Shown here one piece after another: positions 9,722 to 61,351 of a DNA stretch of 64,000 nucleotides. A model generated the notes under the pieces. The model ran no database searches and had not been told where the DNA came from. It saw only the letters and a program-made list of their open reading frames with translations. Numbering within the stretch: the first letter of the stretch is position 1; each line of letters begins with the position of its first letter. The position numbers and the translations under genes are program-made. This DNA comes from Melastoma dodecandrum (taxonomy: Eukaryota > Streptophyta > Magnoliopsida > Myrtales > Melastomataceae), in contig JARUPY010000537.1 of the NCBI GenBank assembly GCA_029817715.1, positions 372,001 to 436,000 of the forward strand. Direction: 5' to 3'.

Positions 9722-10131
9722 TCTCTTTCTCTTCAACGACTTCTGCTTCTTCGTGGTCTACGCTTTTCAGAATGCCTTTCTCAATTATGGTGGCGTTGAC
9801 CAATACATCCCCTCCAGCCAAAGTCCTTTCTAAACTTTATTTTATTTGTTTATTGAGTTTATTTCATGTTCACATTTCATCCTCCAAAAAAAAAAACCCT
9901 CCTTTGACTGTTGGATGGGTTTGATTTGAATGTTAGATTCATGTTAAGAAGAAGAGCCACTAAAAATCTATTTTTTTAGGCTTTGTCATAATCATAATTT
10001 AATTAAATAGTACTTTTAATTACGTCAATTCAAAATACATTGCTCATAAAAAGAATTGACCGATAATATTTAATCCTAAATATAACTTAGAAGATAACAT
10101 AGTCGACGTGCCAATGGCGGCATCTGGGCTT

Positions 10132-20229: not shown

Positions 20230-23200
20230 TATCCGCTTCTAAAACGAGCCGAGCCGTTCGCGAGCTAGCTCGGTCAAAGCTCGGTTCGAGCTCGACTTTG
20301 AGCATGCTCGAGCCGGCTCGTTAACAAAACGAGCCGAGCTCCAGCCTAATTTTATTTTATAATTTATTAATAAAAAATTAATAAAATTACCTAGAAAACT
20401 TTTTTCTTCCCCCTCCCCACACTCTGTGGTAAAAGCAAACCATAAAGAAAAAAACATCTCTCTCCCTCTCCTTTTGACATGGCGATCTCCTCTCTTTATT
20501 TAGGTAAGCGGAAAATAATCGGCATTCTCGTACTCTGTATCTCGCGAGGATCGGCCAAAGCGAGCGTCAAAAAGTACCGAAGATGAGCTAGCCGGATTTT
20601 ACGCCTGCGAGTAAGCGACAGATAAAGGTGAAGGCGCCATAGTCAAGGTACGCTCCCCATCCCTTTACCCTCTCATATTGTGTCTGGGCATGATGATTCA
20701 AAGCACACTTGAATAGGAAGATCTGATTCCCTCCCCTCGCTTGTTGGCTCATCGATGATTTTCGATGCTGTGTTTTTCCAGAATTTTCTTTTAAAAAAAT
20801 TTGGATTTCGTGGTTTTAAATTATCTATGCAAATGATTTGAATGATGAAACTTTATCAAATGGCTTATGCATCAAGTGCTAAATATTGTTCTCCGACAAA
20901 TCTTTTTTAACAAAACGTCTAATGTTCACTTTTCATCTGTCAAATGTATGATAAATTTGGTCAGTTTGCTTCTTATGATGGTGAATTTTAAAATTTTCGT
21001 TCTTCCGAGATTTTTGTCATGCGGAAAAATATTGGAGACCAGAACTGAAGAGGCATGGCTTGATAATGTTCTTGTTCTAAACAGCACCTAAACTTTTCAA
21101 ATTCTTAAGCATGCATTAACTTCTTCATTATTATCCATGAATTATTTTTATGCGATGAATAGTCTTATACCGGTTATATATCTAGTGCAGAGGATCTCAT
21201 ATCCTTTCTCTATATTGATTTGTGCAATGTATAAATAAACTTCTCAATGATGATGATATTAAGATGACGAGTCCCATTGAACTTCCATTCTTCTAAATCA
21301 TGATGTCTATTTTGAGGCATTTGTCTGAGAGAAGTTTTGTTTCCTTTGTTCTCTTTGTTTTTAAATTCATTATACAGCGGTATGGCATTATGATGAACCT
21401 AATTATACCATCTGATTCTCTGACAAATAAACCTCCTACTCATTCTGAATGCCTCACTATTAAAAGAACTTGCAATTTTTTGCGTGTCATGATTTTAATT
21501 TTTGGTGCTTGTTTAGCTATGTTTGCCTTTTAAAACTGTTCATAGTGGGAGCAACTAAAATTTGGCCTTAACCAGGCTTTTATCTTAGATGCATGCATCG
21601 TGGTTGGGCGTTGTTGGTATTTGTGTTGGGGTCTGGACTTCTGTTGGTATTTGTGTTGGATTCATTTGGTCTCACATCTTTTCTTTATTTGCTTTGTCTG
21701 TCGGAAACAAATATGTCAACGGATTATACGTCTTCTGCACCAGCCGTAGGGAGTGGTGTTGTTGAAAGTAATGAATTGAGCAAGGAGCTTCAAATCCAAA
21801 CCGAGGCATTGGAAAGGATAGAGCTAAATTCGGCTGGTGAAACTAATAATGCAACAAAGAAGGATGCACTAGAAGATGTGAAATTCAAAGCAAATAAAAG
21901 GAAGAGAGGTTCAGCGGTTTGGGATGATTTTGAAGAAATTTTGGAGAATGGAGAGAAGAAAGCTAAATGCTCTCATTGCTGCCATCTCTTAACAATTCTT
22001 AAATCGGGGAGTACATCTCACTTAAAGAGACAAAGAGATAATTGTTTGAAGAGGAAGATGAACTTGAAAGAAGCTGAAAGACAGGCACACTTGAATTTTC
22101 CGTCAATCGATGGAGCTACACTTCTAGTTCCCACGTTGCATTCCGAGAAGTTTGACATGGGACAAATGCGGGAGGCAGCTGCACATTGGATTATGATGCA
22201 TGAACATCTATTTTCCATTTTGGATGAACAGGGATTCAATATGATGATGAAGTTAGGGATGCCCGAATGGAAAAAGATTGGTAGAGTTACAGGCAAGACG
22301 TTTTGTATGAAAGTTTATAAGATTAAAAAGACGAAGTTGAAGAACAATCTTCAAAGTGTTAGCCAAATCAGTTTGACAAACTGATTGTTGGAAATCAAAG
22401 AACCAAAAGATAGAGTATATGGTTGTTACAGGGCATTAGATTGATCAATCTTGGAAGTTGCACAAGAGAGTCTTGAGATTCTTTCACATTCCACCCCTGA
22501 GAACAGGTATTCTGATTTTCGATGTAATTTTTAAATGCATGAAAGATTGGGCTATTGAGAACAAGGTTTATTTTGTTACTGTTGATAATGCATCTAGTAA
22601 TGATGTTGTTATCAAGTATTTGAAGGAGACAATTCAAGTATCAAGGAAGTTATTGAGTGGAGGAAAGTTATTTCATGTTCAATGTTGTGCACATGTTCTG
22701 AATCTTTGTGTTCAGGATGGATCGGATGAAATTAAAGACATCATCCAAGTAGAGAGGCAATGTGTAGAATATGTGAATTGTTCCGATGATAGGCTGATAA
22801 AATTTGTTGTGTGTACAATAACTACAATTGAAAGAAAGGAGATTGGTTCGTGATTGAAAAACTCGATGGAACACAACTTTCGAGATGCTTAGTTGTGCTT
22901 TAAAGATCAAGGATGCTTTTAGAATGTTCTATCAACGCGATTCATTATTTGATTATTGCCCTTTGGATGAACATTGGGATAAAGCTCACAAGATTTTTTC
23001 CTTGTTGGAGTCATTTTGGACAGCGACACATATTATTGCAGGTAGTGAGTATACTACTTTGAATTTGTATCTTCAAGAAGTTCGGAAGGTAAAATCGGCC
23101 TTAGATATTGCTGTTGAACATTCAGTTGAATTTATTAAGGCATTAGCATGCAAGATGAAGCTCAAGTTTGACAAATATTGGGGCGAACGCAACTTATTGA

Positions 23201-24060
23201 TGGTTGTTGCTGCGGTGCTCGACCCAAGTCAAAAAATGATGGCAGTTGATTTCTGTTTTCCAAAGCTTTATTCTGACAGAAATGTTTCAAAGAATAAAGA
23301 TTCTGTTGAAAAACAATTAAAGGCCTTTATGAAGAATATGTTAGAGAGCATTCGAAGGCATCTTCTGACTATTCGAATTATGAGAGTTTGGGTTCTTCTA
23401 GCAGTGTTGACATGCAAGCAAGTATTACTCAAAACTGGGATGATTTTGAATCATATTGTGAAAAACTTGAGACTTCAGGGCCTAGAAAATCTGAATTGGC
23501 TGAATATTTGGAAAAAAAATCATCTGAAAAAGAGTAATATTGCCAAAGACTTTTCTTTTTTGGATTGGTGAAAGATGAATCGGTACATTACTTAATTTTG
23601 TCAAGAATGGCAGCTGATATTTTAGTCATCCCAATAAGCTTAGTGGCTTCTGAAGGTACTTTAGTGCTGGAACGAGGGTAATTGATGATTATCGTTCATC
23701 TCTTTCTCCGAATACAGTAGAAGCATTACTTTGTGGAGAAGATTGGCTTCGACATTTACATGGGATGAAAAAAAATGAAAAGGTAAGTTTTTTTTCATTT
23801 AAGGTTTTTTCATTTATTAAACATGTTACTAACCCAAGCTTTTTATTTCTCTTTTTGTTTCTTTTACAGAAAGGAAAAACATACCAAGAGATATTTATTC
23901 AAGTACCTAATCCAACTTCTTGAAGTAAGGTACGTTACATACTTCACAAAATTTTAAGATATTTATTGTTTTATTATTGTTATGGTGATTGTAATGCTCT
24001 TTATAATATTCTATATGCAGGTGATGATGCTTGTGATACTATTATGATTTGGTAATGAAG
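20230..24060 (+). mobile_element. Decayed hAT transposon (BED-finger, RICESLEEPER-like)
   Basis: The left end (20240-20345) is rich in GAGCCGAGC / GAGCTCG words, typical of the subterminal regions of plant hAT elements. A leader with intron-like GTACGC...CTTAG sequence follows, then the transposase (21713-23780). I find no matching GAGC-rich right end before the Copia fragment starts at 24108, so the 3' end is probably deleted or overwritten. The element lies between the two copies of the GST duplication. Confidence 0.7.
21713..23780 (+). pseudogene. hAT transposase pseudogene
   Basis: The start MSTDYTSS is followed by a BED zinc finger (AVWDDFEEILENGEKKAKC, then C, H and a final C; about 21910-22050). 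After a stop near 22382 the frame resumes at 22458 with the catalytic core: IPPLRTGILIFDVIFKCMK, ITVDNASSND-type (VTVDNASSNDVV) and GGKLFHVQCCAHVLNL. It shifts again at about 22851. The stretch 22885-23571 has YCPLDEHWDKA, FWTATHIIAGSEYTT, KYWGERNLLMVVAAVLDP, the domain usual in DAYSLEEPER/RICESLEEPER proteins. The hATC dimerisation segment (LSRMAADIL, PISLVASEGT) survives in a different frame at about 23600-23690. At least four breaks rule out function. Confidence 0.9.
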
Positions 24061-30199: not shown

Positions 30200-31479
30200 T
30201 GTAAAATGTAGAAGGTGATACATGATCGGTCCTCTATAGCATATGCACCCGAATGTACTACACTTTTACAAGTTTGCACAGGTTAGCGTGACTAACGGTT
30301 TGCACGGGTTAATGTAACTAACAATGGTAACTAGGTGGTTGGACGTTCTCTTCCTCAGACAGTGTCTTCGTTAGTTGCACAGCTACCCGCTGCGGCTTCT
30401 ACTTTGCTCCTCACCGAGTAATCCTTTGGCACCTCACCAAGTAGGCATAACAATATGCTACGACTTCCCCTTAGGTCCTCACTGAATAATCCATTGGCTC
30501 CTCACCAAGAATATTCCACTCCTCGTGAAGACTTCTCCTCGGCTGCTCACCGACGTTCCTGCATAAAACCACAAAAGAACATAGTTACCGAACCAGGTCA
30601 ATCCCTCACCGTCTGTGCTACCAGAGTTCTAGCCTTCACTTTGGTCACTACATTTTGGCTCGTACACAGCCAGTAATCCTCCCCCGGATCCTGCTGCACG
30701 CCCCTCCAATGCCACAGCCTCCAACCGAAGTCCATCGTGTCCCCGAGTCACCCTCCTAGGAGCTTTACCGACGATACTGCCTTTTGGAACTTACTCTCCT
30801 CTCGCAGTGTGCAAGAACACGAACGACACACCGAAAACAAAATCAACCAGATGTAATCTCTATAAATCTACCGATAATAATGTCGAATTAACTTATTTAT
30901 AACTAATCAAACGAATCTAAATTAGGCTAATAGTATACAGGACGTCGGGTTGCTATAGATGGGAAGTATCTTGCTGCATACAAAAGATATGATTTGTTAG
31001 CGTAATAATCATATAAATCACATGAGATTACTTCGATATTGTGACAACATGACGTCAATCAAAGAATGATTGATTTTGTCCAAGCAAGTAACAGAAGGGC
31101 AGAAGGTTCTGCAGACGTGTAACCTTCTGTAAAAGGAAATAATCCTTGATCTATTTTCTAATCTAGTTGATTTCGTCCAAATATGAGAACACATGTTCCT
31201 GAACGTTATCTCTAGTAAAAAGCTATAAGAGTTCAGTCCATATCAAAATACAAATGAATATGGATCTCTTTAACCAACATAAGGTCAGTATAGAACCTTC
31301 CAAAGAGAGAAATATATTATTCCCAAAAAAGGAAGATATGATCTCATCATTTCTTTTATAAGAAATTTTCTCATTAATACTAAGCAGATATGATAAGGTT
31401 GACAATATTTTAATGGGATATTTTCTTTTATCTTTAATTAATTAATTAATTTGATGAATTAAAAATATATTTATGGAAA
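30200..31479 (-). mobile_element. LTR-like dispersed repeat, copy B (main part)
   Basis: Minus-strand landmarks follow the order seen in copies A and D: GTAAAGCTCCTAGGAGGGTG, GGGGACACGATGGACTTCGG, GTGAGGGATTGACC and GTTAGTCACGCTAACC. The 5' part of the repeat appears to resume at 40134-40375, so the 8.65-kb element at 31480-40133 interrupts it. Confidence 0.6.
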
Positions 31480-31615
31480 GGCTTAATTATCAAATATGTC
31501 CTCAACTTTACTCGTTTTTTTCCGATCTAGCTTGAAGTTTAAACCGTATCTCTGGGGGGCCTGTACTTGCGACCTGTTTCAATTTTATCCCTATTTTCTT
31601 AAGTCCCTCAGATAC
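31480..31615 (+). repeat. Left terminal inverted repeat
   Basis: It starts GGCTTAATTATCAAATATGT, contains TTTTTTTCCGATCTAGC and ends near AAGTCCCTCA. It pairs with 40020-40133 on the other strand. Confidence 0.7.
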
Positions 31616-31653
31616 TTTTTCTCAGACAATTAAAAACTTAATTTTCCTTAAAC

Positions 31654-31666
31654 GGCTCTAATACCA
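31654..31666 (-). other. tRNA-Met primer binding site
   Basis: TGGTATTAGAGCC on the minus strand differs at one base from the caulimovirid initiator tRNA-Met primer site (TGGTATCAGAGCC). It defines the origin of minus-strand DNA synthesis and, by convention, position 1 of the viral genome. It lies only about 40 bases inside the left inverted repeat. Confidence 0.8.
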
Positions 31667-31833
31667 ATAAATCCTTACAGGAATCGAACTTAAGAAGAGT
31701 TTTTCAATTGTCTTTGTCGCCGGCGTTCTGCCAACCTCGAATACTCATTAGAATACCTCGAACTTGCCGTATACCCAAGATTGGATTTACCTTCAAGGAA
31801 ATATTCCTCAAATTCACTCTGCAGAAGAGTCAG

Positions 31834-31998
31834 CTATTCTAATTTCTTAGAGTAGCTATCCACAAGCTCTATTAGCTGCTGTATTTGCGATGAGAGGCCT
31901 GCCAGTCGATCTACTACAGTGTTTAGAAGTCCAGTAGCAGAATCCTTGCCCACACCGTGATCCAAATGTAGGAGCTCGGGGTTTGGACAATCAGTCAT
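31834..31998 (-). CDS. Short ORF in the pararetroviral leader
   Basis: A 54-codon frame starts at ATG 31998 with a leucine-rich, coiled-coil-like C-terminal half (LLNTVVDRLAGLSSQIQQLI). It lies between the promoter and the primer site, where caulimovirid leaders carry short upstream ORFs. It could be such a leader ORF or a small virion-associated protein; I cannot decide. Confidence 0.4.
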   Translation of the reverse strand: MTDCPNPELLHLDHGVGKDSATGLLNTVVDRLAGLSSQIQQLIELVDSYSKKLE

Positions 31999-32252
31999 AA
32001 GACTCGTGCTTTCGCAACTGTCGTGCTTTGGCACCACCTTCACAATCTTATTAGATCATGAAGATTATCATAAACTACACAGCGGAAAGTTTATCATACC
32101 TTAACTCAGTGGGTTGCTCAGAGGGTTCACCAAGCTTCCACAACGATAGAGATCCAATAGTAGCACAATTCTCAAGCTAGAGAATTCAGCGAACGCATCC
32201 GCAAACTGGAGAGGCTCTTCTGTGTCGTTCCAATGCCCTTACACTGAGGGTC

Positions 32253-32260
32253 TTATATAG
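32253..32260 (-). promoter_or_regulatory. TATA box of the pregenomic RNA promoter
   Basis: CTATATAA on the minus strand, followed by GACCCTC, resembles the TATA context of the 35S-type promoter. It lies about 590 bases upstream of the primer site, the normal leader length in the family. A second TATA-like run at about 32488-32498 lies further upstream and is a weaker candidate. In this linear copy the promoter sits at the downstream end and cannot drive the coat protein ORF. Confidence 0.65.
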
Positions 32261-32595
32261 ACACTCCTCATCCAAGGTTTCAGCCCAAGGCTATACTCCC
32301 TGCAAGGTTCTTGATCTTTTGATCTGACCTTCCGTTAGTCTTAACCAATGTTGATTAATCCTAACCACCTTACTCTTGGTTTCTTAAGGTATTCGGAGAG
32401 CGATTCAGAGATTTTCTTACTCAGAGTTTTTGAGAGAGAATTTCTCTATTTGATTCGCCTCCCCAAATGAGGTAGAGGGCTTGTGAATATATATACAAAG
32501 GAGCTGGTGCCTATGCACTGTTTGCCAGCTCAAAAATAAAAGGAATCTAAACTGTTGCAAAAGTTAGTGGGGTCCTAATGACCGACAAAAATGTC

Positions 32596-34852
32596 CTAGC
32601 CTAACTTTATACAGCTATCTTCTCTCGTCTGCATTGGTGCGCTGTCTTGGGAGTCTCCTTCATTGTTGTTGGCTCTTGACGTTTCGCCAACTCCTTCTTT
32701 CTCTGAGAGTCCCGGTGGGTCTTGGACCGCTTTAAGAATTTGTTGGGCTCTCTCATCATGCTCGATTTGCTGATTTAAAGTCTTGTCTGTAAAATCAGCA
32801 ATCTTGCTCCAAACCTCGAAGGTGTCGGTTCGGAAGTGCAACTTAGAGTTCTCTCGCCTCCAGAAGCTATCCAGTAGGTCGAGCATTCTCTACCATCCTC
32901 GGTCTCCTGCTTGTTCATCGATGAGGCTCAGATTCGACCGAAGAATCGTGACGGTGATCATACCATCACAGAGCACATAGTATTCGTCCTTTCGGGCTAA
33001 CACATGCTCCAGCACATCTTTAAGGAACTCAACCTTTATGGCCTTCCGGACGATTTTGTCCTTATAGTATTTTCGCCATAAACCTCTCTGATCGAGGTCC
33101 TGTCGTTGAGGTTCTACCAGACGTCTACTCTCACATGGATGGATATTCCATACTTGCAGATTTTGAAGTATCACCTTCTCATACTGCGGATGGTCTTCCT
33201 CCTCCATTATTGTGCTAGTAATCAACGCCGTGGCATACTTTGGTCCGTAGCCTAGGCATCCGAGTACAAACCTTACTAACGTAGGCAGGGGTGCCATACA
33301 TTCTGGATCGGATCTGTCGATTTCCAGCATGTCAACAAACCCAGCATACACGTAGGGTGCTGCTATTCCCACCATATCTGAGTGAATTCTCAGAGACGGC
33401 CACTTCCCCGATATCCAGTGTAGATACGGTTGAAGCACAATGTTTTCCTCAAGAGAGGATTCACTCATGTCTACTGTTACCCTTGGGACGTCATAATCTC
33501 TAACTTCCCCCGGTATTATAGACATCGTTGTGGAGAATATCTGCTGTCTCTCCTTTTCAACTCGGGACAGCTCCTCCTCACCTGAAGCCATAATCGATAG
33601 CTTATACTCCAGATCTTTGATGTACTCAACGGTCTTTCTTGCGAAAAACTCAATCTGGTGCTTGTCATCATGTTTGATGCCACCCATGAGTCCTCCACAG
33701 ACCACAGCCGCATCCCAACTCAGGGATTCGTCCTCAAATGAGTCTTCATCAAAAAACCAGGATCCTCCTAGATCCTCATGGCCTTTGCCATCGTGGTTCT
33801 TACCACCGTGACTGCTTTCACTAGACTCCTTGACTGAGTCTCTCACAGGAATTGCTTCCTCAAGGCTTTCTTTCTTTTTAAGATTGCCTTCCAATGCTGC
33901 GTAAGCGCTTCCAAAGTCCAAGTACTGCTCACACTCAATTGCAGCCGCTTCCTCTGGTTCTCCCCTTGGTTCAAGGTCTAGCACTTGAATTGGCTCACCA
34001 ATAATGGCCTTGAACTTAGCCTCTTCCTCAGCATACTGTGTTTCCATGTTCTCCTTCTGTTCCTCCTTGCTTTGTAACAAAGCCTTGTAGGATTTCACAG
34101 CTTGATTAATGGAAATTTTCTGCTCTTTGGCTAAGTGCTACCGGCAGTAATTGAACTGCTCCATGGTCAACGGAGACCACCAAGGTTCTTCAACCTTTCT
34201 GTCCTTCTTAGGACCATCCTTTGCAGAATCATCCCCCTTGGGACCAGAAGACCCAAGCCTCTTGGCTTTCCTCTTTTTTTCTGGCCTTCTCCTCTGACTC
34301 GGCTTTTGCCTTGTCTTTCAGATATGTCATTTTCACATCTCTTTTGGAGTTTTCCTCCTTCAGATCTGTCATCTTCTTTTGAAGATCTTTCTTCACATCT
34401 CTTTCAGAGTTGGTGTTATCCTTCTCCTTCAGATCTGTCTTCCCCTCCTGGGAAACTCTTGCTTTCTCCTTGGGATTGGTTATTACCTTTCCCTTAGATC
34501 ATGCCATCCCCTTCTGGGATTCTTTCGCATTTCCCTTAGATCTGGCCTCAGCCTCCTTGGGATTAGCCATCTCCTTTTGGAGATCTGGTTTCGCCTTACT
34601 TTCGGAGTCAGCTTTTGCTTTCTCCTTAAGTTCAGCCTTCCCTTTCTAGGAATCCGCAGTTTTCAGCTTCTTGGGACATTCGTAAGAACGATGTCCTAGT
34701 TGCTTGCACTGCCAGCAGAGTACTGCCGCCTTCGTTCCTGAAACGGAACCAGCATCACTATGCTCACCATCTCCCTTATTAGGACATACCTTTCGGGAGT
34801 GTCCCTCCTTCTTGCATCCCCAGCATATCTTTCTCTTTGCAGCAGGATCCAT
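32596..34852 (-). pseudogene. Fourth pararetroviral ORF with two zinc knuckles
   Basis: It starts with ATG at 34852 inside the RT 3' end. Two CX2CX4HX4C knuckles follow (CWGCKKEGHSRKVC and CWQCKQLGHRSYEC, to about 34670). Next comes a Lys/Glu-rich region of repeated decapeptide-like units (KEKAKADSES, DLQKEMANPK, DLKEKDNTNS, DLKEENSKRD), probably a charged helix or coiled coil. From 34098 a 402-codon open stretch has an acidic region (FFDEDSFEDESLSWD) and a C-terminal folded part I do not recognise. Breaks are stops at 34646-34648, 34499-34501, 34138-34140 and 32890-32892, and a frameshift near 34271-34281. The position downstream of RT suggests a transactivator/inclusion-body-type or unknown accessory protein; that assignment is inference only. 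Confidence 0.7.
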
Positions 34853-36011
34853 CTGCAGAGTTTTTAGAAAGAGAGGTGTTTGCAAGTTCTCTAGAGAGAG
34901 AGTCAGCTATTATGTTGTGGTCGGACTTAATGTATTCGACCTCATATTTATAATAGCTTAATTGTTCCTGCAACCTTAAGAGCCTAGTATGCCTAGCTTC
35001 CTTAAGGTTCAGACTCATAAACCTTTTTACATAGGTCGAGTCAGAGCGCACTAAAAATTCTTTCGGTGCCAAAAAGATGTAAAAAGCCTTTATCCCGTAT
35101 TTTAAGGCTAATACTTCTTTTTCATGTATCGGGTACCGTAATTCATACCCCTTGAAGCTTCCCGACCAGTATTTACACACCGGTTCTGGTTTTCCTCCTC
35201 TAATTTTGAGGACTGCTCCCCAATATTCTTCAGAAGCATCAACTTCCAAGACTAACTCGTCCTTGTCAGAAGGTAGAGCAAGCTGTGGCAAATTTTTCAC
35301 CTTTGTTTTAATCCTTCTAATGGATTGAGTATCTTCATCTTCCCATTTCCAAGGATTTGTAGAAGAGGTTTTCTTCGCAATCCTACCTAAGTCTCTGGAA
35401 AGATCTTTCACAAACTTTCTTGCATAGTTAGCGCATCCACAGAATCTTTGGACTTGCTTTCTATCCTCAAGTCTGTCAGGAAAATTAATTATTTTCTCAG
35501 CAATATGATTTTGCAGTTTAATTTTTCCCTGCTCAATCTCCATGCCTAGAAAATTAACTGATTCCCTAAACCATTCTATCTTTTTCTCTGATAGAATCAT
35601 GCCCTCTCGCCGGAAGGCATCAGTCACCTCATCAAGGTGTCTCATGTGTTCATCCTCAGTCTGACTGTAGATTAGCACATCGTCAATATAGACCGCACAA
35701 AATTTTCGGACCTGCTTGAAAGCATTATCCATTTTGCGCTGAAACACGCCTGGAGCATTTTTCAGGCCGAACGGCATTACCAGCCATTCAAACATTCCTT
35801 GCGGAGCATTGAAGGCAGTTAGAGGAACCGACTCTTCCTCCATCTTGACTTGCCAATATCCACTTTTCAAGTCAAATTTAGAGAAGAACTTTGGTTGGCT
35901 CAGACTTACCCTATCAATTAAATCTCCCACAGTGGGAATCTTATAGCCATCGTCTTTTGTAGCTTTGTTAAGCTGACGATAATCTATAACCATTCGTGCT
36001 TTACCTCGCAC
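34779..36011 (-). pseudogene. Pararetroviral reverse transcriptase-RNase H
   Basis: This is a 410-codon frame in register with the preceding ORF, separated from it only by the TAG at 36012-36014. RT motifs are present: ARMVIDYRQLNKAT, FSKFDLKSGYWQV, MPFGLKNAPGVFQ and the catalytic YIDD (35679-35690). The RNase H domain has its acidic set in VDASEEYWGAVL, HEKEVLALKYG, VRSDSTY and SDHNIIADSLSR. No integrase follows. The domain itself is uninterrupted. Its 3' end overlaps the start of the next ORF by about 70 bases in another frame. Confidence 0.9.
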
Positions 36012-38282
36012 CTAGTCGGCATGATTAATAACCATAAAGGCAGGACTAGAATGTGGACTGTAACTGTCCCTAATCAAGGCTTTCCCAAGCAACTCAAGAA
36101 TTTGTTTGTCAAAATCCTCAACCATCTCAGCCGTATACGTAATGTTTCTGGCTCTTATAATGGTTTCGGGATCTTTCAACTCTAATCTAGCCTTTAGGCC
36201 ATTTCGAGTCCATAACTTTAGTGGATCTTCACTAAAATTATCGGCTAGTTTTATTAGGAACTTATCCCATTTCGTTCCTATTAACTTAACAGCCATACAC
36301 ACTTCTTGTTTTGGAAACAAGTCGTCATACCAACTAGAACTTCTGGTATTCGTTGGAGAAAACAGGGTTTGTTCCCATGAATCGTTCTCATCCAACCGTA
36401 TATCACCACGTTGAGCTCGCACTCTGAAAGCTCTTTCACATGGGATATCGCCACAGTATTCTGTCCGTTTTACCGGATAAAAGCCAAATTTTAACCGAAG
36501 TCTAGGCTCTTGTAGAATACTTATTTTTACCCCACCGATGGAAACATCATTTTCATTCTGCACAAAAGGAAGGTTTTCCTTCTGTCCCTTCAAAAAGGCG
36601 TTACCAATAATGATGTCGGCCTCTAGTAAAGGATGTGCAAGAATCTCTTTAATGATGAACTTTTGTCCACCAATAAAGACAGGCACGTTGCTTGCCTTAT
36701 GACCAACAATTGTGGCCATACCATCGACGTTAACCATGTGGATGGGTTTCTGCAGTGGTTCCCACCACTCATCTGGCAGAGCATTGAGTCTAGCACAAGT
36801 TATGCTACACCCAGTGTCTATCAAAGTATCCAGAGAATACTCATAGTATCCAGGAAATTTGAAAGTTAGAGCCACATATGTGCTCATGTCTTCCTTCCTA
36901 ACACTAAACCCAATATTCTCAGGTACCTTCTGGGATGGTTCTATCATCCTCCAGATATCGTCTATCGCAATAGACCTTTGCTTGGCTATCTGCTCGATAA
37001 CCTTACAAACTTCAGGAATCTCAGATAAAGAGCTACCAGTATTGGTTATTCTTAACATCCGTATGGACTCCTCTCTCGTTTGATCTATAGGGTCTTCATA
37101 GACTGGTAATGATACCTGTCTATACCCTACGATTCTACCCGTATGTTGCGACGGGGCTCTCGAATCAACAGACCCTCGAGACATCTCTTCTATTAGCGGA
37201 GGTGCACTTGCAACCTCTGGTCGAGAAACTATTACTTCTTCTCCCACATCACTAGCTCTTGAAGAGACTTCAGAGGGCGCTCTATTGAGCGGTTCTCTCA
37301 GGAGTGGCATCCTCACAGGCAAATGCCTGTCAGCTCTTTCGCTAAGCATAGGCAAATGCCTATCAGCTCTTTCACTGACCCTTGACGGATCTCCTAACAT
37401 AAGAGTAATTTCACTACCCCTCTGTCGGATGTTTGCCGCACTAATGGGCCTAGAGCTACTACCAGGTTCAGTCATAACCCAACTCCTTGGCCAGGTTAAT
37501 TCTAATGGATTCACCTCACGCCTATGGAACTGTTGGTAGTTGCTATGACCTTCCTCGAACAACTCAGTAAGTCTTGAGATGTTCCTCACACCAGGACTAG
37601 TGGTATTTACCAATCGATAGATTACCCTAGTGTGATACGCCAAATACTTGGCCTGGGGATTCACACGATCCATATTCATCGACTTGATTCTTAAGGTCAA
37701 TGAAGTCCCCAAACAGCGATTATTCAGGGCCATCATGAAATTTGAATGGACTTGGAACCATACAGGGCCATGTGCTAAGTTGGCCTGTATTCCTGATATC
37801 AGCTGATCTCTAAACTCTCGCCACCGTTTGTCGATCACTGCTGCTACCACAGGACTATCCGCTGGTAAATGAAACAGCGGGACTAATCCTATCTGGATCA
37901 ACCCAATGTGTATATGGTTATATACACCTCTCGTACTACGCATGGTATCTCTTATGCGCTGTACATTTAAGAGTGGGATATCCAAAGTCTCAAGCTCAGT
38001 GCTCGTGACTTGTACCGTCGCCTCAGTCTGCGATATATCTATAGTGGATCGAAACCTAAATCTCGATACTTCATAAACCTCCCTCGCATTTACAATTGGC
38101 AATCTCCATTCCAGAACTGATTGGGATGGATCTTCGTACTGGTGGGTTTCCTCCAGTACCTGATTCGTTGTTTCCAAAGGAACTAACTCATCACCATCTC
38201 CTTCCCTCTCTGCTCGCATCATGAACAGATGTTCGGTCCAGAGATCAGAATCATCATCTGAGTCTGTATCATAATTAGACAC
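36012..38282 (-). pseudogene. Pararetroviral movement protein-protease ORF, stop before RT
   Basis: This is a 756-codon frame. Residues about 110-240 match the 30K/caulimovirid movement protein (NHIHIGLIQIGLVPLFH, ANLAHGPVWFQVHSNFMMAL, YRLVNTTSPG). An aspartic protease follows with its active-site DTG at about 489-491. The frame then runs into the start of the RT region and ends at an in-frame TAG (36012-36014). The RT frame continues directly in the same register. The first codon of the open frame is GTG at 38282; the first in-frame ATG is at about 38222, so the start is uncertain. The movement protein would let the virus pass plasmodesmata; the protease would process the polyprotein. Confidence 0.82.
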
Positions 38283-38297
38283 AATCTCATAAATCGA

Positions 38298-39995
38298 TTA
38301 TACTTCCGAGTCTAAGTCGGAAATCTCTTGCTCATCTATTGGTTCATAAGCAAGGACCTCTTCTTCACGACTCCTGTCATCTAAGAAGACCATACGGAGT
38401 CTTTCTCTCCTTTGATTCTTCTTTGGACAACTATCCGCTTTGTGGTCTTTTGAACCACAAAACCAGCAGCAATTACAACTGCTCAAAGGTTTCCCTTTAG
38501 GACATTTAGGCTCTCTACCATGCTTTCTCTTGAAAGCATCGATCCTATCTTTATCCTTCAGGTTATCCCTTCTCCTCACAAACCTTCTTGGTTTGTAAGC
38601 AGGACCTCCCTTTTGCTTACGCTGGAAGTCCTTCTTGGGCCAAACTTTCTTTTTGTTGTACCCAACAAACTTCCTCTTACGAGGAAAGTTCCTTCTCTTC
38701 AAAGAGTCTCCTGGAGTACTGCGAGTATCGCATCCATACCTTCCAGGCACATACTCTATCTGAGAACAACAGCTCTTGTTCAGGTAAGGTAGCTTCTTAG
38801 CTGCCTCTTTCACCTGGAGCTCAGTACATGCTTTACGCATTGCGTACTTCACCGCCTGAATTTTACCTCCGAGTCCAGAGACAATCTTTTCCTCACTCAG
38901 AAGTAATTCATAGGCCTTTTGCGCAACTTCCGGCCAAGGTTCGGGAAGTTTTGCAAAAAAGGTTCCTAATATGAACTGTTGTGATACTACATCCAGATTG
39001 TAATAATACTTCTGGAATTCACACACGTAGCTATCAAACCAGCACATATCACAGATCTGTAGTTTAACTAGAGCGGTCAAGGACTGCTCTTTTTCCACAG
39101 TTTCAGTGGATAATGAGAAACCACAGAACTCTCGTTTCAGGGCATCAGCGATTATTGCCAATACTCCGTCAACCGTCAGCGCTTGATCTATCTTTTCCTT
39201 AATGTCTGTGTGCGCCACTAAGGTTTTCCAGTATTTTTGCGCTGTACCCATGAGGGCTGCTACACATAATTCGTAGACTGCCCCAGGAGGTACTCCTCCT
39301 GCAGACGCCGTCATCCGAATAAGTGATAACCACTCATCTATCTTTTCAGATACGTGCTTTTCACAATCAATGTCCAGAAAGGCACCAGGGGTAATTATCG
39401 GCTTTAGTACATTATCCCTTGGAACAAACTCTTGTTTAGTCCTATGGGGATAATCAGGCCTATAAATTTCCCTCTTCGCAGTTACCAGTTTGTTAAACGT
39501 TCTATTGTCTAAATGAACTGGGGTGTCCTCTTCCAGACCTAAGGCTTTTCTTAGGTCTTTTGCCAACTCCCCACTCTGGGAGTTCAAGTTTGCACTTCGC
39601 TTTTGTGAGTCTAAAATGAAAGGAGCTACTGACTCCCTATACATTTCATCCACACTTTTGCCTTGATTCTGTTTGGAATTTCTTCCTCCCAGATTCAATC
39701 TTTCGACTGGTTTTCCCGTGGTACTTTCCAGTCCAGAGGTCGCCTCGGCTTCAGGCCTTTTTAAACCTCTTTCTCTTTCCAGAGCGTCTAACATTGTGTT
39801 TACAATGGAGCCTACTTCCTTTGCCATTTGGTTTCGGCTTTCTAGACTTTCATTGCTCCCCTGAATGGTTAGCTGAGTTAAAATATCATTTATACTCTTG
39901 CTAACTCCAAAAGGAGACAATCTAGCCTCTGGAACGAACTCCAAACGCGATGGAGTCCCAGAAGGATTTTCCGAAGCTTTTCCTTCTCCAGCCAT
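38298..39995 (-). CDS. Pararetroviral coat protein-like ORF
   Basis: A 565-codon open frame begins with ATG at 39995. The central part (about residues 190-400) is a helical capsid-like region with Trp and Tyr positions typical of caulimovirid coat proteins. A very basic stretch follows (about 435-500, many KR, KK and RR pairs). A single CX2CX4HX4C zinc knuckle lies at about 510-523 (CWFCGSKDHKADSC), and the tail is acidic. These features define the nucleic-acid-binding coat protein of the family. The frame is intact. The next ORF starts 16 bases after its stop, implying reinitiation or polycistronic translation. Confidence 0.85.
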   Translation of the reverse strand: MAGEGKASENPSGTPSRLEFVPEARLSPFGVSKSINDILTQLTIQGSNESLESRNQMAKEVGSIVNTMLDALERERGLKRPEAEATSGLESTTGKPVERLNLGGRNSKQNQGKSVDEMYRESVAPFILDSQKRSANLNSQSGELAKDLRKALGLEEDTPVHLDNRTFNKLVTAKREIYRPDYPHRTKQEFVPRDNVLKPIITPGAFLDIDCEKHVSEKIDEWLSLIRMTASAGGVPPGAVYELCVAALMGTAQKYWKTLVAHTDIKEKIDQALTVDGVLAIIADALKREFCGFSLSTETVEKEQSLTALVKLQICDMCWFDSYVCEFQKYYYNLDVVSQQFILGTFFAKLPEPWPEVAQKAYELLLSEEKIVSGLGGKIQAVKYAMRKACTELQVKEAAKKLPYLNKSCCSQIEYVPGRYGCDTRSTPGDSLKRRNFPRKRKFVGYNKKKVWPKKDFQRKQKGGPAYKPRRFVRRRDNLKDKDRIDAFKRKHGREPKCPKGKPLSSCNCCWFCGSKDHKADSCPKKNQRRERLRMVFLDDRSREEEVLAYEPIDEQEISDLDSEV

Positions 39996-40017
39996 TCAGA
40001 AAATATTATTTTGGGAC

Positions 40018-40133
40018 TTTGATGGATATTTTTGAAACTTGGGTCAAAGTTTAGGACACAAAGAGATATTTCTTAAACTTGAGGATAGATTTGAAAATTT
40101 TTGTAACTTGGGGATATATTTGATAAAGCGGCC
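40018..40133 (-). repeat. Right terminal inverted repeat
   Basis: Read inward on the minus strand it starts GGCCGCTTTATCAAATATAT, contains CTATCCTCAAGTTTAAG and TCCTAAACTTTGACCC, and ends near AAAGTCCC, about 20 bases before the coat-protein start. Confidence 0.7.
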
Positions 40134-40375
40134 ATATGGAAATAAATTTTCATATTTACCAAAGTCAGTACTGCATCGCAAAAATACTTTCGCTCATCAT
40201 TCCTTTAACTAAGGTAATGATTTTACTCACAAAACGTTCCTTATAGTGACTTTTTGTAACGTACAATATAAGCTTTTATAAATTACATGATCACCTTCTG
40301 TATCGTATCATACATGCTTTCGTATAATATAAAGACAAGGTCCTATATGGGTATTATCAAAATCATATTAACAGA
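40134..40375 (-). mobile_element. LTR-like dispersed repeat, copy B (5' part)
   Basis: On the minus strand, from about 40375, the sequence reads ATTTTGATAATACCC, then GATACAGAAGG, comparable to the start of copy A (GTTTTGATGATGAGCC then TTACAGAAG). It should join 31479 downwards if the 31480-40133 element is removed. Confidence 0.45.
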
Positions 40376-56739: not shown

Positions 56740-57816
56740 GGCCAAATTAACAAATATATCCTATACTATATCTCATTTTTCCGATCTATCCCGTCGTTTC
56801 GTAGAGTAACCCCAACTTAAGACGTAACTTCGACGTTATCCTCCGTTAGGTCCCATCTTTACGGAGTCCGACATGTCGCACACGTTACTCTAACGCCGTT
56901 AACGGCCAAATTAGTAAATATATCCTGTAATATACGTCATTTTTCCAATCCATCGCGTCGTTTGAAACGTATCGTACAGTAACCCAACTTAAGACGTTAT
57001 CCTCCATTAGGTCCCATCTTGACGGAGTCCCGACGTGTCGCACACATGACTTTGTCGCCGTTAAAATATAACGGCTGGCCAAATCCGATAATCGAAAAAC
57101 CTAATTTCTCCACCTTTCCCTTTCTCACCCAACCCCATACCCATGCTCCATGTTGCTAAGGCCTGCGAGGTATTCATGGAATTGGTTGACGCCGATGGTG
57201 CCTTCTGCCAAAGAACTCGTCTATGAACAACACCCTAAATTCATCAGGACCTACTGGGGAGCAGTGAGCACTGCTTTCTCCTCAAGAAGGAAAAGGTTTC
57301 ATCCATACAGGGTGGTCGTGGCTAACGGCCCTACTTTCGGATGTGTCCTTATGATGGATTTCCTGAGCTCCCTTACTAAGAAAATCAATTTCAACGGTAC
57401 TGGCCTTGAAAACTATCGCCGCATATACATTCCCGATGGCATCCCCTCAGATGTGATCCTGAGGAACCTCTAAAAGTGGGAAATAATACGAAATTGACAG
57501 CCGGGGGTTTATTTCATTATTTCCTCAAAAGGTTCAGGAGCTCGAGCTAATTTTATACTATATGGATCTTTTATATTTTTGGCTTAATTTGCAATTCTGT
57601 CCTGTACTTTTTCTATTTTTTCCGATCTATCCTATGGTTCAGCTAACGGTGATTTTTAACGCCGTCATAGCCACGTATGCGATACGTCGGACTCCGTCAA
57701 GACGGGACCTAACGAAGAATAACGTCAAAGTAACGTCTTAAATTGGAGTTACTGTGCGATACTGGGATAGATCGGAAAAATGGGGTATAGTACATGACAT
57801 AATTGCAAATTAGGCC
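56740..57816 (+). mobile_element. Pack-MULE-like element with perfect 9-bp target duplication
   Basis: It is flanked by identical 9-mers TATATTCAT at 56731-56739 and 57817-57825. The terminal inverted repeats are about 170 bases: left from 56740 (GGCCAAATTAACAAATATAT, TTTTTCCGATCTATCCC, GTTAGGTCCCATCTT, GGAGTCCGACATGTCGCACA) and right inward from 57816 (GGCCTAATTTGCAATTATGT, TTTTTCCGATCTATCCC, GTTAGGTCCCGTCTTGACGG). The left repeat is tandemly duplicated (second copy about 56906-57075). A partial third left-type end starts at 57581 (GGCTTAATTTGCAATTCTGT). The interior carries a 107-codon ORF and no transposase. The ends belong to the same family as those at 31480/40133. Confidence 0.9.
57150..57473 (+). 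CDS. Unidentified ORF inside the Pack-MULE
   Basis: A 107-codon open frame occupies most of the sequence between the inverted repeats. It ends ...GIPSDVILRNL and has a hydrophobic middle (VVVANGPTFGCVLMMDFLSS). I do not recognise the family. Genes inside such elements are usually captured fragments of host genes; whether this one is translated is unknown. Confidence 0.35.
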   Translation: MLLRPARYSWNWLTPMVPSAKELVYEQHPKFIRTYWGAVSTAFSSRRKRFHPYRVVVANGPTFGCVLMMDFLSSLTKKINFNGTGLENYRRIYIPDGIPSDVILRNL

Positions 57817-58016
57817 TATATTCATTTAAGAGAATAAATCAATTGCAGACGACCTCTGTCTTTTGGTCAAGTTCGATTGCAGTTGTACATTATTTAGAGT
57901 TAATCTGGATTGTTCATTCCTAAACTATTATCAGGTAACGACAACAAAGGCAACTTGTATAAGCAGAACCAGCTTGTTCGGATCCCGAAACCTCAATCAT
58001 TTTTCGGCTGTTTGGG

Positions 58017-61000
58017 ATGGCGGGGACATCGGCAGCAGGGACTAGTCACAGCACTGAGAACACCCTAGCCGGATCAGCTTACGATGTGTCCGTTAGCTTC
58101 AGGGGATCCGACACCCGATACGACATCACTGATGTCCTTTATGTGTTCATGAAGGAAAAGGGGATCCGCGTGTTTAGGGACACAGAGGAGATCCGTCTCT
58201 GTGAAGAGATCGGGGACGAGCTCTGTCGAGCTATCCCGGATTCTTGGATCTATGTTGTTGTTTTCTCCAGGGGCTACGTGTCGAGCGTGTGGTGCCTCCG
58301 AGAACTCGCCATGATGGTGGACTGCCGCGGAGACTCGACCTCTGGGAAAATCATCTTGCCCATCTTCTACGAGGTAAGCCCCAACGACGTGAAGCTGCAT
58401 ACCAATCTGTACCGGGCCGCCCTCGACAAGCACAGAGAAAAGTACAAGGAAGAGGATGTTAAGAAGTGGGAGGAAGTTTTGAAGAAGGTTGGGGGTATCC
58501 GTGGTCTTGAATACAAAACAGATACAGGGTATAACTCATCAGCTTAACCTTTTCTTTATTCTTCTCATTATTATTATTTGTCTTTGGTTGTGGCTTTTTC
58601 CAAGTTGTTAGTCGGCAGTTTGTTGAGCAACTTGATCTCCATTTGATTTTGGGCAGGAAGGGCAAGTTTGTTAGTGATGTGGTTGCGAATATTCTGAACA
58701 AGCTGAACATTAGTGATAGGATATTGCCAGATCATCTCATAGGGATGGATGATCGTGTGGACAGTCTAATGGGCATTCTGAATTTGAGATCTCACGTTGA
58801 ACGACTAGTCGTGATGGTGCATGGCATGGGGGATATTGGGAAGACAACGTTGGCGAATATCATCTTCAACAAAATCTCTTCCCGATTCGATGGATGCTGC
58901 TTCCTGCGAGAATCGTTGTCGACTGGCGTGGTAGGTGTTGAAAAGTTGCAAAAGAAGCAATTGAAGGATATCTTCGGTAAATTGGATGGGGAAATCAGTG
59001 ACTGTAGTGATGGATTGAATGAGATTCGGAGACGGCTCAGAAACAAAATGGTCCTTATCATTTTTGACGATGTGAGCGAGAATATTCAGCTCAAAAAGTT
59101 GGTTGGAAATTTCAATTTCTTTGGTTTGGGAACGAGAATTATCATCACGACGAGGAATAGTAGTGTTTGCGAGGGCCTCATGAGATCTAGTGATATTGTT
59201 TATGAAATGGAGGGAATGAGTGATGACCACGCTCTGCAACTCTTTAGTCGGCATGCCTTTGGTGGAGAGGGGCCTCCAAATGACTTTGTTTCCCTATCAA
59301 AGCAAGTTATTCGTATGACCGGAAATCTTCCCTTAGCTTTGGAGGTGATTGGAGGGCACTTGCTCCAAAAGGAAAAGAAAGTATGGGAATATACATTGAA
59401 AAAGCTTGAGCGAGTGCCTCACAAAGACGTTTTGAATAAACTACGGATCAGCTACGATGATTTAGAAGAGAGTGAGAAACACATTTTTCTGGACATTGCA
59501 TGTTTCGACCATAATGCGATGACTAGGGAGTATGCCAATTACATGTGGGAAGCATGTGGTTTTTATCCTAAATGTGGATTGGACGTCCTCCGAAACAGAT
59601 CTTTGATAAAGGTCCTGAATGTCGACGATGACGCTTATAAGAGACATAAAGACATGTACTGGATGCACGACTTAATTAGAGAGATGGGAAGAGAGATTGT
59701 TCGTTCAGAGAGCCTTCTTCATTGCCCTGGCTTGCGCAGCAGGCTGTGGGATCAGAAAGAGGCCTTTAAAGTCATACGCCAAACACAGGTCGAGTATAAT
59801 AATAATTTCCTAATTTTTTGGATTGAACTCGTGTCTCCAGGCTTCCTCATTTCCTTGTGTTTCGTTACCAGGGCACCGATCAAGTTTTAGCCATCGATCT
59901 GGGTTTGCTCTTGGGTGAAGACAGGATCACAGTTAAAGAATTCGAGGGCATGTCTAATCTCAGATTTCTCAAGTTAGGAGATGGACAGTTAATTGGGAAG
60001 TGCAGCCACTTGCGGACGAAGCTATTGTGGCTACGTTGGGATCTGTTAATGTGTCGTGTTCCTTCCCACTTCCTTCAAGGTGGACAACCTCGTTGTCCTC
60101 GAGATCTCAGGGAACAAATTTACGAACTATTCATTGAAAGATTTGGTATTAATTCCCTTTCCCTTGTTTCCATATGGGAAGGCAGAACATCAACATTAAC
60201 TAATGAGGAATACTTTCTTTTCTTTTGCTTTTGTGATTTTAACAGAGGATGGGTAATTTGAGAGTACTAGATATCAGAGACACCCAGATCACAAGAATGC
60301 CTAACCTCTCTCAGTGCTTAAAGTTGGAATTAATTTGTCTCAAATGTTGCCACCAATTGATAGAGCTTGACGGTTCTATCGGTGTACTACAGAATCTTAA
60401 ATGCCTGAAAATAGAAGGTTATGAGTATCTGAGAAGCTTACCGAAGGAGCTTGGATTCGCAAAAGCTCTACAAGAGCTAATTTTAGTAAATTGTGACCGC
60501 ATCCAAGAGCTACCAGAGTCTATTGGGGGGCTAAGGGACTTGAGAATACTACGTGTGAATGGGACAAGCAAAAGGAACCTACCATTCTCGATCGAAAGTC
60601 TAAAGAGCCTCGAGGTGTTGGATATCGACCGATCCCCCAGTAGAATGTTGCTTGAAACTTCTTCAAAGGAGCCAACCCTTGCAAGGTGTGATCTATCCGG
60701 ACTCTCCAAGATCCGCTCCCTTAATTTATATGGTCTCAATGAGCTGGGGGAGCTATTGGGGATCGAGAAGCTATGTGGGTTGAAGAAACTGAAGTTGAAT
60801 ATCTGTGGCAAGCTTGTTCTTCCGTGTACCAAGTTGGGTTCCCTGACCATGTTGGAGGAACTCTATCTGGGTTCTGGGGACATTTCATCAGGATCACAGC
60901 TTCCTTCATCCTTGCGTAAATTTACTCTCGTGGGATACCCAAGAAAGGGTTGTTATTGGTCAATGTTGAGTGAGACGACTTGGCTGGACGGACTAGATAA

Positions 61001-61351
61001 GACGGGAAATCTGAGTGATTTGTCTTTAGAAGGGTGGATGCATATCAAGTTGTCAAATTTAGCATCGTTGAGGAGGCTATGCTCTTTACGTCTGGTGGGA
61101 TGTAGACGGATCGACTTTTATGGGATGGAAAGATGGAGCTCTTGGAGGAGTTACTTGTCCTCTGTTGTCGTGACTTCCTAGGTGAAATCCCGGACCTGTC
61201 GAACTTGAGAAGATTGAAGAAGGTGAAGTTCTCTTCATGCCACTCTCTGCAAAGCGTGCCCTGTATGGAGGGAGACTGTCACTTAAGGATTGTTGGTTGC
61301 GACAAACTGGAGCCATTTGAAGGCCCGTACTCGCAATACCACGACAAATGA
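58017..61351 (+). pseudogene. TIR-NBS-LRR (TNL) immune receptor, frameshifted
   Basis: Exon 1 (58017-58528) encodes a TIR domain: YDVSVSFRGSDTR at residues 22-34 and the NADase catalytic Glu at 96 in WCLRELAMMVD. Exon 2 (58657-59788) joins in frame and encodes the NB-ARC: P-loop GMGDIGKTTLA (Asp where Gly is usual), LIIFDDV, GTRIIITTRN, NLPLALEVIGG, DIACF and an intact MHD (YWMHDLIREMGREIV). Exon 3 (59872-60145) starts GTDQVLAIDLG but shifts frame near 60079. Exon 4 begins at 60246 with LRRs (MGNLRVLDIRDTQI, LPESIGGLRDLRIL). A second frameshift lies near 61140, after which GEIPDLSNLRRLKKVKF continues in another frame to 61351. All introns have GT/AG borders. TNLs cleave NAD+ on activation; TIR and NB-ARC are intact here, so a truncated TIR-NBS protein could still be made. 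Confidence 0.88.

What the first reader, a model, noticed from the sequence alone, without database searches (positions are those of the whole stretch)
31480..40133. A whole pararetrovirus genome sits between Mutator-type terminal inverted repeats
Seen: ~130-bp inverted repeats at 31480-31615 and 40018-40133, 9-mers TTATGGAAA / ATATGGAAA immediately outside them, and virtually only viral sequence between (primer site ~40 bases from one repeat, coat-protein ATG ~20 bases from the other). The flanking DNA looks like the two halves of one LTR-like repeat, so the inserted unit ends exactly at these repeats. Known: Mutator elements make 9-bp duplications and Pack-MULEs carry foreign DNA. Inference: either a virus DNA integrated into a small MULE, or a MULE captured a complete 8.4-kb viral genome and moved it. 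The second would be a transposon route for spreading viral fossils without viral integration.
Basis: partly seen in the sequence, partly recalled or inferred. Interest (0 to 1): 0.9.

Follow-up and report, generated by a model that had tools for sequence, protein, structure and literature searches.

The report
Plant virus bounded by transposon ends
A plant pararetrovirus sits in its host's chromosomes in many copies that begin and end with Mutator-type transposon ends, and its genes show that it was a working virus while it carried those ends, so it seems to have borrowed the host's jumping-gene machinery to insert itself.

Summary
The inverted repeats bounding 31480-40133 are significant. In the same plant assembly, 31 of 38 other copies examined have both ends where expected, flanked by matching 9-mers (25 identical, 5 with one mismatch, 1 with two; one shares the window's own site). 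Insertion as a Mutator-type unit is established.

The idea of a dead fossil carried by a Pack-MULE is not. Copies differ under strong purifying selection in CP, MP, RT, ORF4 and a small ORF5: dN/dS 0.10-0.19 in the true frame, 0.71-2.05 in wrong frames. The window's stops are mostly private. The primer site is perfect in 10 of 10 other copies. Target duplications differ by 2.2%, the repeats by about 12%.

Some copies carry a second, unrelated ~155-bp pair of inverted repeats at the same two places, with 10-bp pyrimidine-rich duplications, and fall among type-1 copies in the CP tree.

Best reading: a replicating pararetrovirus whose genome carried exchangeable MULE ends and integrated through host MULE transposases. 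Transposase and episomal circle were not found; those searches did not complete.

The parts
31471..31479 (.). left 9-bp target-site duplication (TTATGGAAA)
   Evidence: 25 of 31 other paired copies have identical 9-mers
31480..31615 (+). left type-1 terminal inverted repeat, begins GGCTTAATTATCAAATATGTCC
   Evidence: 20 of 20 left ends fetched begin here
31655..31666 (-). initiator-tRNA primer-binding site (1 mismatch here; perfect in 10 of 10 other copies and in 15 of 17)
31690..32055 (-). approximate place of a small ORF5, open for 112 codons or more in 9 of 10 other copies, broken here; dN/dS 0.17 in its frame
32614..34047 (-). ORF4 of unknown function (Melastoma relative of 481 aa), broken here by a stop at 32890 found in 0 of 10 other copies
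34779..36011 (-). reverse transcriptase and RNase H stretch
   Evidence: purifying selection
36012..38297 (-). movement protein and A3 protease stretch, same frame as the RT stretch; stop at 36012 found in 1 of 10 other copies
38298..39995 (-). coat-protein stretch, same frame; stop at 38298 found in 0 of 10 other copies
40018..40133 (-). right type-1 terminal inverted repeat, begins (minus strand) GGCCGCTTTATCAAATATATCC
40134..40142 (.). right 9-bp target-site duplication (ATATGGAAA)
56740..57816 (+). non-viral Mutator-type element with ends related to the left TIR and perfect TSD TATATTCAT

Best explanation
This is one decayed copy of an endogenous pararetrovirus (Caulimoviridae) whose genome carries Mutator-type terminal inverted repeats between its primer site and its coat-protein gene. 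Shown: the unit TIR-virus-TIR inserted at many places with 9-bp duplications, and its viral genes evolved under purifying selection. Inferred: the virus replicated as a circular episome through its own RT, CP and MP, with the two TIRs abutting in its leader. Also inferred: host MULE transposases acting in trans cut at the TIR ends and inserted the genome into chromosomes. The ends can be exchanged: the same virus also occurs with a second TIR pair that makes 10-bp duplications.
For: Shared junctions and sharp ends: of the 40 scored left-junction hits (window included), 38 cover the whole query or all but two bases; of the 40 scored right-junction hits, 22 end exactly at the last TIR base and 38 within five bases of it (the other two are the window and the copy that shares its flank). 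TSDs: both ends in place in 31 of 38 pairs (25 at 9/9, 5 at 8/9, 1 at 7/9), against 26 of 930 cross-copy pairs at 8/9 or better. In 10 further TIR-selected copies, 7 at 9/9, 1 at 8/9, 1 at 6/9, 1 without right end. Selection: dN/dS CP 0.10 (496 of 496 pairs below 1), MP/CP 0.13, PR-RT 0.15, ORF4 0.19 (55 of 55 each), ORF5 0.17; the same stretches read in the two wrong frames give 0.71-2.05. PBS perfect in 10 of 10 and 15 of 17. TSD divergence 6 of 270 sites against TIR divergence of 11.6%. Of 40 TIR hits, 39 were looked at and lead into virus. Second end type with a 10-bp TSD, among type-1 copies in the CP tree, 31 of 41 matches ending within two bases of its terminus. The outermost 25 nt of the left TIR are more conserved (6.5%) than the whole (11.6%).
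Against: No episomal circle or TIR-TIR junction was seen; the pattern search for it did not complete. The search for a MULE transposase did not complete either, so no partner with these TIRs is known. A linear copy has its intergenic (presumed promoter) region next to its far end, so how it would make a terminally redundant RNA is unexplained. 5 of 38 pairs lack a right end without explanation (L085, L090, L106, L107, L109). The one viral-contig scan found no relative. The noncoding control is not at 1: the intergenic stretch without ORF5 gives 0.56-0.70 in all three frames, so the method leans low, though far less than in the coding frames. In one search shared intergenic variants read in ORF4's frame gave 0.24, which traces to ORF5. 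The right TIR is hardly like the host MULE of the window.
Confidence: 0.68

Rival explanations
1. Pack-MULE: a non-autonomous MULE captured one complete virus once and then spread it as passive cargo by DNA transposition.
For: TIRs, 9-bp TSDs, one shared junction, no transposase recognised inside.
Against: Purifying selection in five viral gene stretches; mostly private stops; TSDs far less diverged than the copies; a second end type on the same core.
Confidence: 0.12
2. A purely intracellular hybrid transposon: MULE ends plus viral proteins that help it multiply (for example RT-made copies), without particles or spread between cells.
For: The same selection and end data; I have no evidence of particles or episomes.
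Against: The stretch at the CP/MP boundary (37780-38820) is under selection as strong as RT, and a movement gene is not expected to be kept by a transposon confined to one cell.
Confidence: 0.12
3. A TIR-less exogenous virus repeatedly replaced the interior of resident TIR elements by recombination, and those elements then transposed.
For: Cores look alike while intergenic regions and ends differ, as recombination would give.
Against: 17 of 17 RT-selected copies with both virus ends in the fetched stretches have inverted repeats there; no TIR-less copy with both ends was met. It needs a fresh transposition after every replacement.
Confidence: 0.06
4. The virus merely integrated into an existing MITE at this locus.
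For: An element with related ends and no recognised virus exists (56740-57816).
Against: The same junctions at dozens of sites with different flanks and TSDs.
Confidence: 0.01

Closest known systems
Teratorn (piggyBac-herpesvirus fusion, medaka; PMC5601938 and PMC10175614, passages read)
   Same: A whole virus lies between DNA-transposon TIRs with that transposon's TSDs, in many copies, with viral genes kept.
   Different: Teratorn is about 180 kb, a herpesvirus, and encodes its own transposase. This is a reverse-transcribing virus of about 8.65 kb with no recognised transposase and with at least two alternative end types.
Pack-MULE / non-autonomous Mutator-like element (recalled, and listing)
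   Same: Long TIRs, 9-bp TSDs, foreign DNA inside, no recognised transposase.
   Different: The cargo is an entire viral genome under purifying selection while carrying the ends.
Endogenous caulimovirids (review PMC10377300; passages and section 13 read)
   Same: CP, MP, protease, RT-RNase H, tRNA primer site; many decayed copies. [quoted passage not shown]
   Different: The passages read name double-strand-break repair, LTR-retrotransposon routes and reinfection; none describes TIRs, target duplications or DNA-transposon ends on a caulimovirid. The CAULIFINDER paper (one passage, PMC9719215) reports no TE-caulimovirid chimeras in its test run.

Membership tests
Mutator-like element (MULE) | long terminal inverted repeats | tested here: met
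Mutator-like element (MULE) | about 9-bp target-site duplication, different at each site | tested here: met
   31 of 38 pairs; 18 of the first 20
Mutator-like element (MULE) | TIRs related to a host MULE | tested here: inconclusive
   left TIR against both ends of 56740-57816 above all shuffles (57 and 49); right TIR 37 against a maximum of 33 and 28 against 30; no transposase-bearing MULE compared
Mutator-like element (MULE) | encodes a MULE transposase (autonomous member) | tested here: not met
   no transposase among Pfam hits of the unit's four long minus-strand stretches; ORF4 has no Pfam match above cut-off
Mutator-like element (MULE) | partner transposase with matching TIRs in the same genome | not tested
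   PF10551 search of the own genome did not complete
Pack-MULE | captured DNA is passive cargo | tested here: not met
   purifying selection
Caulimoviridae | CP, MP, A3 protease, RT, RNase H | tested here: met
Caulimoviridae | tRNA primer-binding site | tested here: met
Caulimoviridae | genus placement | tested here: inconclusive
   best named virus among the 120 of 301 RT hits listed is Cassava vein mosaic virus at 38%; unnamed relatives 46-49%; no tree made
Teratorn-like transposon-virus fusion | virus genome between transposon ends with that transposon's TSDs | tested here: met
Teratorn-like transposon-virus fusion | own transposase gene inside | tested here: not met

The most novel reading that the evidence does not exclude
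A reverse-transcribing plant virus in which no integrase is recognised has taken up Mutator ends as part of its own replicating genome and swaps between end types by recombination. It thereby hijacks at least two host transposases with different target preferences (9-bp A/T-rich and 10-bp pyrimidine-rich sites) as interchangeable integrases.
Probability: 0.5. Interest if true: 0.96.

Novelty: new variant of a known kind. Interest (0 to 1): 0.9.

Why it matters
How endogenous pararetroviruses enter and multiply in plant genomes without an integrase is an open question: the Teratorn review (PMC10175614, passage) calls the mechanism unknown, and the caulimovirid review lists hypotheses only (passages and section 13). 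Here the mark of a mechanism, TIRs with target-site duplications, is preserved at dozens of sites in one genome, so the question becomes directly testable. If right, a virus can gain a chromosomal integration system by acquiring 115-160 bp of transposon end on each side and using the host's enzyme.

Tried and rejected
Rejected: chance inverted repeats; a single integration into a MITE; a dead master copy. Led nowhere: structure prediction of ORF4 from a two-sequence alignment (mean pLDDT 34), so no fold search was made; viral-contig scan with the RT stretch (no relative); Pfam on ORF4. My first impression that four RT-selected copies have no inverted repeats was wrong: one search showed a different pair. 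An earlier count said ORF5 is open in 8 of 10 copies; the count is 9 of 10. Not tested: empty sites, flanks as halves of an LTR-like repeat, genus tree, full-length tree, other caulimovirids of the same genome as a control.

The 20 RT-selected copies were 20 of the 40 rows, chosen because their ends had not yet been seen (1 row is the window, 14 had already been met or 47 with a type-1 junction, 5 were left out); the share of type 2 among them is therefore biased upward. Interior stretches were fetched for 10 of the first 20 copies only. In some searches multi-allelic and poorly covered sites were dropped; and 139 codons with gaps or stops were dropped; the TSD date left out L005, which shares the window's site. 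TSDs of the type-1 copies in the second RT batch (L163-L172) were not scored formally.

Full report
What is there. The window is plant DNA (three plant snoRNAs; NLR genes). It lies in a 373-Mb assembly. The only two relatives found for the unit's ORF4 are Melastoma candidum proteins (84%, and 72% over 40% of the query), so a Melastomataceae host is likely (inference). On the minus strand 39995-34779 one frame, cut here by stops at 38298 and 36012, carries a Caulimovirus coat domain, movement protein, A3 protease, RT and RNase H. ORF4 follows (34047 to about 32614, broken at 32890). Then come an intergenic region with a small ORF5 open for 112 codons or more in 9 of 10 other copies and the primer site at 31655-31666. 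TIRs of 136 and 116 bp close the unit; their alignment scores 75 against a shuffle maximum of 37.

It is a mobile unit. A query across the left junction gave 40 scored hits (window included) of 527 candidates, the others at 88-95%; 38 cover the whole query or all but two bases, one starts at base 15 and one at base 48. The right junction gave 40 of 536; 22 end exactly at the last TIR base and 38 within five bases of it. In the first 20 fetched left ends the element starts at the same base; the flanks differ, except that one copy shares the window's flank and one pair shares a flank. Over all 38 pairs fetched from TIR-junction hits, 31 have the right end at about 8.65 kb. Their 9-mers agree 9/9 in 25, 8/9 in 5 and 7/9 in 1, while left and right 9-mers of different copies agree at 8/9 or better in 26 of 930. 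Of the seven pairs without a right end, two have one farther away (21.5 and 28.6 kb: nested insertions inferred) and five are unexplained. Ten further TIR-selected copies gave 7 at 9/9, 1 at 8/9, 1 at 6/9 and 1 without right end. Of the 40 TIR hits (the window among them) recur, 5 have a right end, 12 were fetched and lead into virus (two of them for only about 86 bases), and 1 was not examined. These ends are therefore virus-bound among the best hits.

It was alive. Variants shared among copies show N:S at 0.15-0.27 of expectation and private variants 0.30-0.55, with 0 of 300 permutations as low in each of four coding stretches. Pairwise dN/dS is 0.10 (CP, 31 copies and the window), 0.13 (MP/CP), 0.15 (PR-RT) and 0.19 (ORF4; 10 copies and the window each), every pair below 1, and 0.17 in ORF5. 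Controls: the two wrong frames of the first four stretches give 1.19-2.05, and of ORF5 1.40 and 0.71; the intergenic stretch without ORF5 gives 0.56, 0.57 and 0.70 in the three frames, so the baseline is below 1 but well above the coding values. Earlier intergenic controls that included ORF5 gave 0.96 for private and 0.24 for shared variants and 0.33 pairwise with 55 of 55 pairs below 1. The window's stops recur in 1 of 10, 0 of 10 and 0 of 10 other copies, so most decay followed insertion. The primer site is perfect in 10 of 10 others and in 15 of 17 RT-selected copies. Target duplications differ at 6 of 270 sites, against 11.6% mean divergence of the left TIR. If both drift at the host rate, most divergence arose before insertion; a virus with a faster rate would give the same picture.

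The ends can be exchanged. RT hits (40 scored of 513) allowed a choice of copies not made by TIR. Of 20 such copies, 17 have both virus ends in the fetched stretches, and all 17 have inverted repeats there above 100 shuffles: 9 of type 1 and 8 of another sequence (two of the 8, L146 and L170, seem to share a site). Type 2 (GAGCTYTG...) does not resemble type 1 (scores 25 and 29, chance level). Four type-2 copies with both termini aligned have 10-mer duplications at 9, 10, 10 and 10 of 10, while 9- and 11-mers match at only 2-5 places and cross-copy pairs reach 9 or more in 0 of 56. L146 and L170 have a CACCTTCTTT repeat. For L149 and L168 no duplication was found. Type-1 targets are 94% A+T (25 sites) and type-2 targets 86% pyrimidine (5 sites). 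A type-2 right-junction query gave 41 matches from 40 scored of 451 candidates; 31 end within two bases of the terminus. In a CP tree of 59 sequences the type-2 copies lie among type-1 copies; type-2 L182 and type-1 L108 are 1.7% apart and sisters with support 0.96, and L162 and L091 are sisters with 0.91. The tree rests on 600 bases.

Mechanism. Shown: insertion as a TIR unit with TSDs; selection on viral genes; two end types on one core. Inferred: the circular viral DNA held both TIRs in the leader between primer site and CP; a host MULE transposase joined those ends to the chromosome; ends were exchanged by recombination during reverse transcription. Not shown: the transposase, the circle, or any present activity. 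How the first virus met the first TIR is open.

Known ground. Searches for such a case in print (titles and abstract starts of the papers listed, which for searches are 30 of 91, 20 of 48 and 12 of 444) showed none; only open-licence PMC papers are held. [quoted passage not shown] the present data would be an instance of that broad idea with a DNA transposon. CAULIFINDER (PMC9719215, one passage) found no TE-caulimovirid chimeras in its test run. Troyka (PMC12440569, passages) is an LTR element and not similar. Teratorn (PMC5601938, PMC10175614, passages) is the nearest precedent in concept. Hence new variant of a known kind, the kind being a virus fused to transposon ends. It is new, as far as these searches go, for reverse-transcribing viruses, for Mutator, for the lack of a recognised own transposase and for exchangeable ends.

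Noticed in passing
L005/L025 (G000 C366) against window 31400-31620: A second locus shares the window's own flank and TSD with about 91% identity over the left end: a duplicated or allelic copy of the insertion.
   Followed up: partly
L115 and L119: Two type-1 ends with the same flanking 9-mer keep only about 86 bases of virus next to the left TIR, then differ from the window: possible deletion derivatives or another interior.
   Followed up: no
L146/L156, L170/L180, L149/L159: Ends that align poorly to type 2 (GAGCTTTGTTCC... and another): perhaps further end types.
   Followed up: partly
L112, L113, L116, L117, L120, L121: Type-1 copies whose intergenic region is much more diverged from the window than that of the first copies: deeper lineages with the same ends.
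   Followed up: partly
window 56740-57816: A 1077-bp Mutator-type element with perfect TSD lies just upstream of a TIR-NBS-LRR gene (57963-61181).
   Followed up: partly
window 5774-9757, minus strand: Long open CC-NBS-LRR resistance gene of 1327 codons.
   Followed up: no
window 20968-21448: Cluster of three plant C/D-box snoRNAs.
   Followed up: no
window 22858-23571: hAT-like transposase fragment.
   Followed up: no
P0055 (Melastoma candidum protein): A second, distant caulimovirid (39% RT identity) in a Melastoma genome; its ends were not examined.
   Followed up: no
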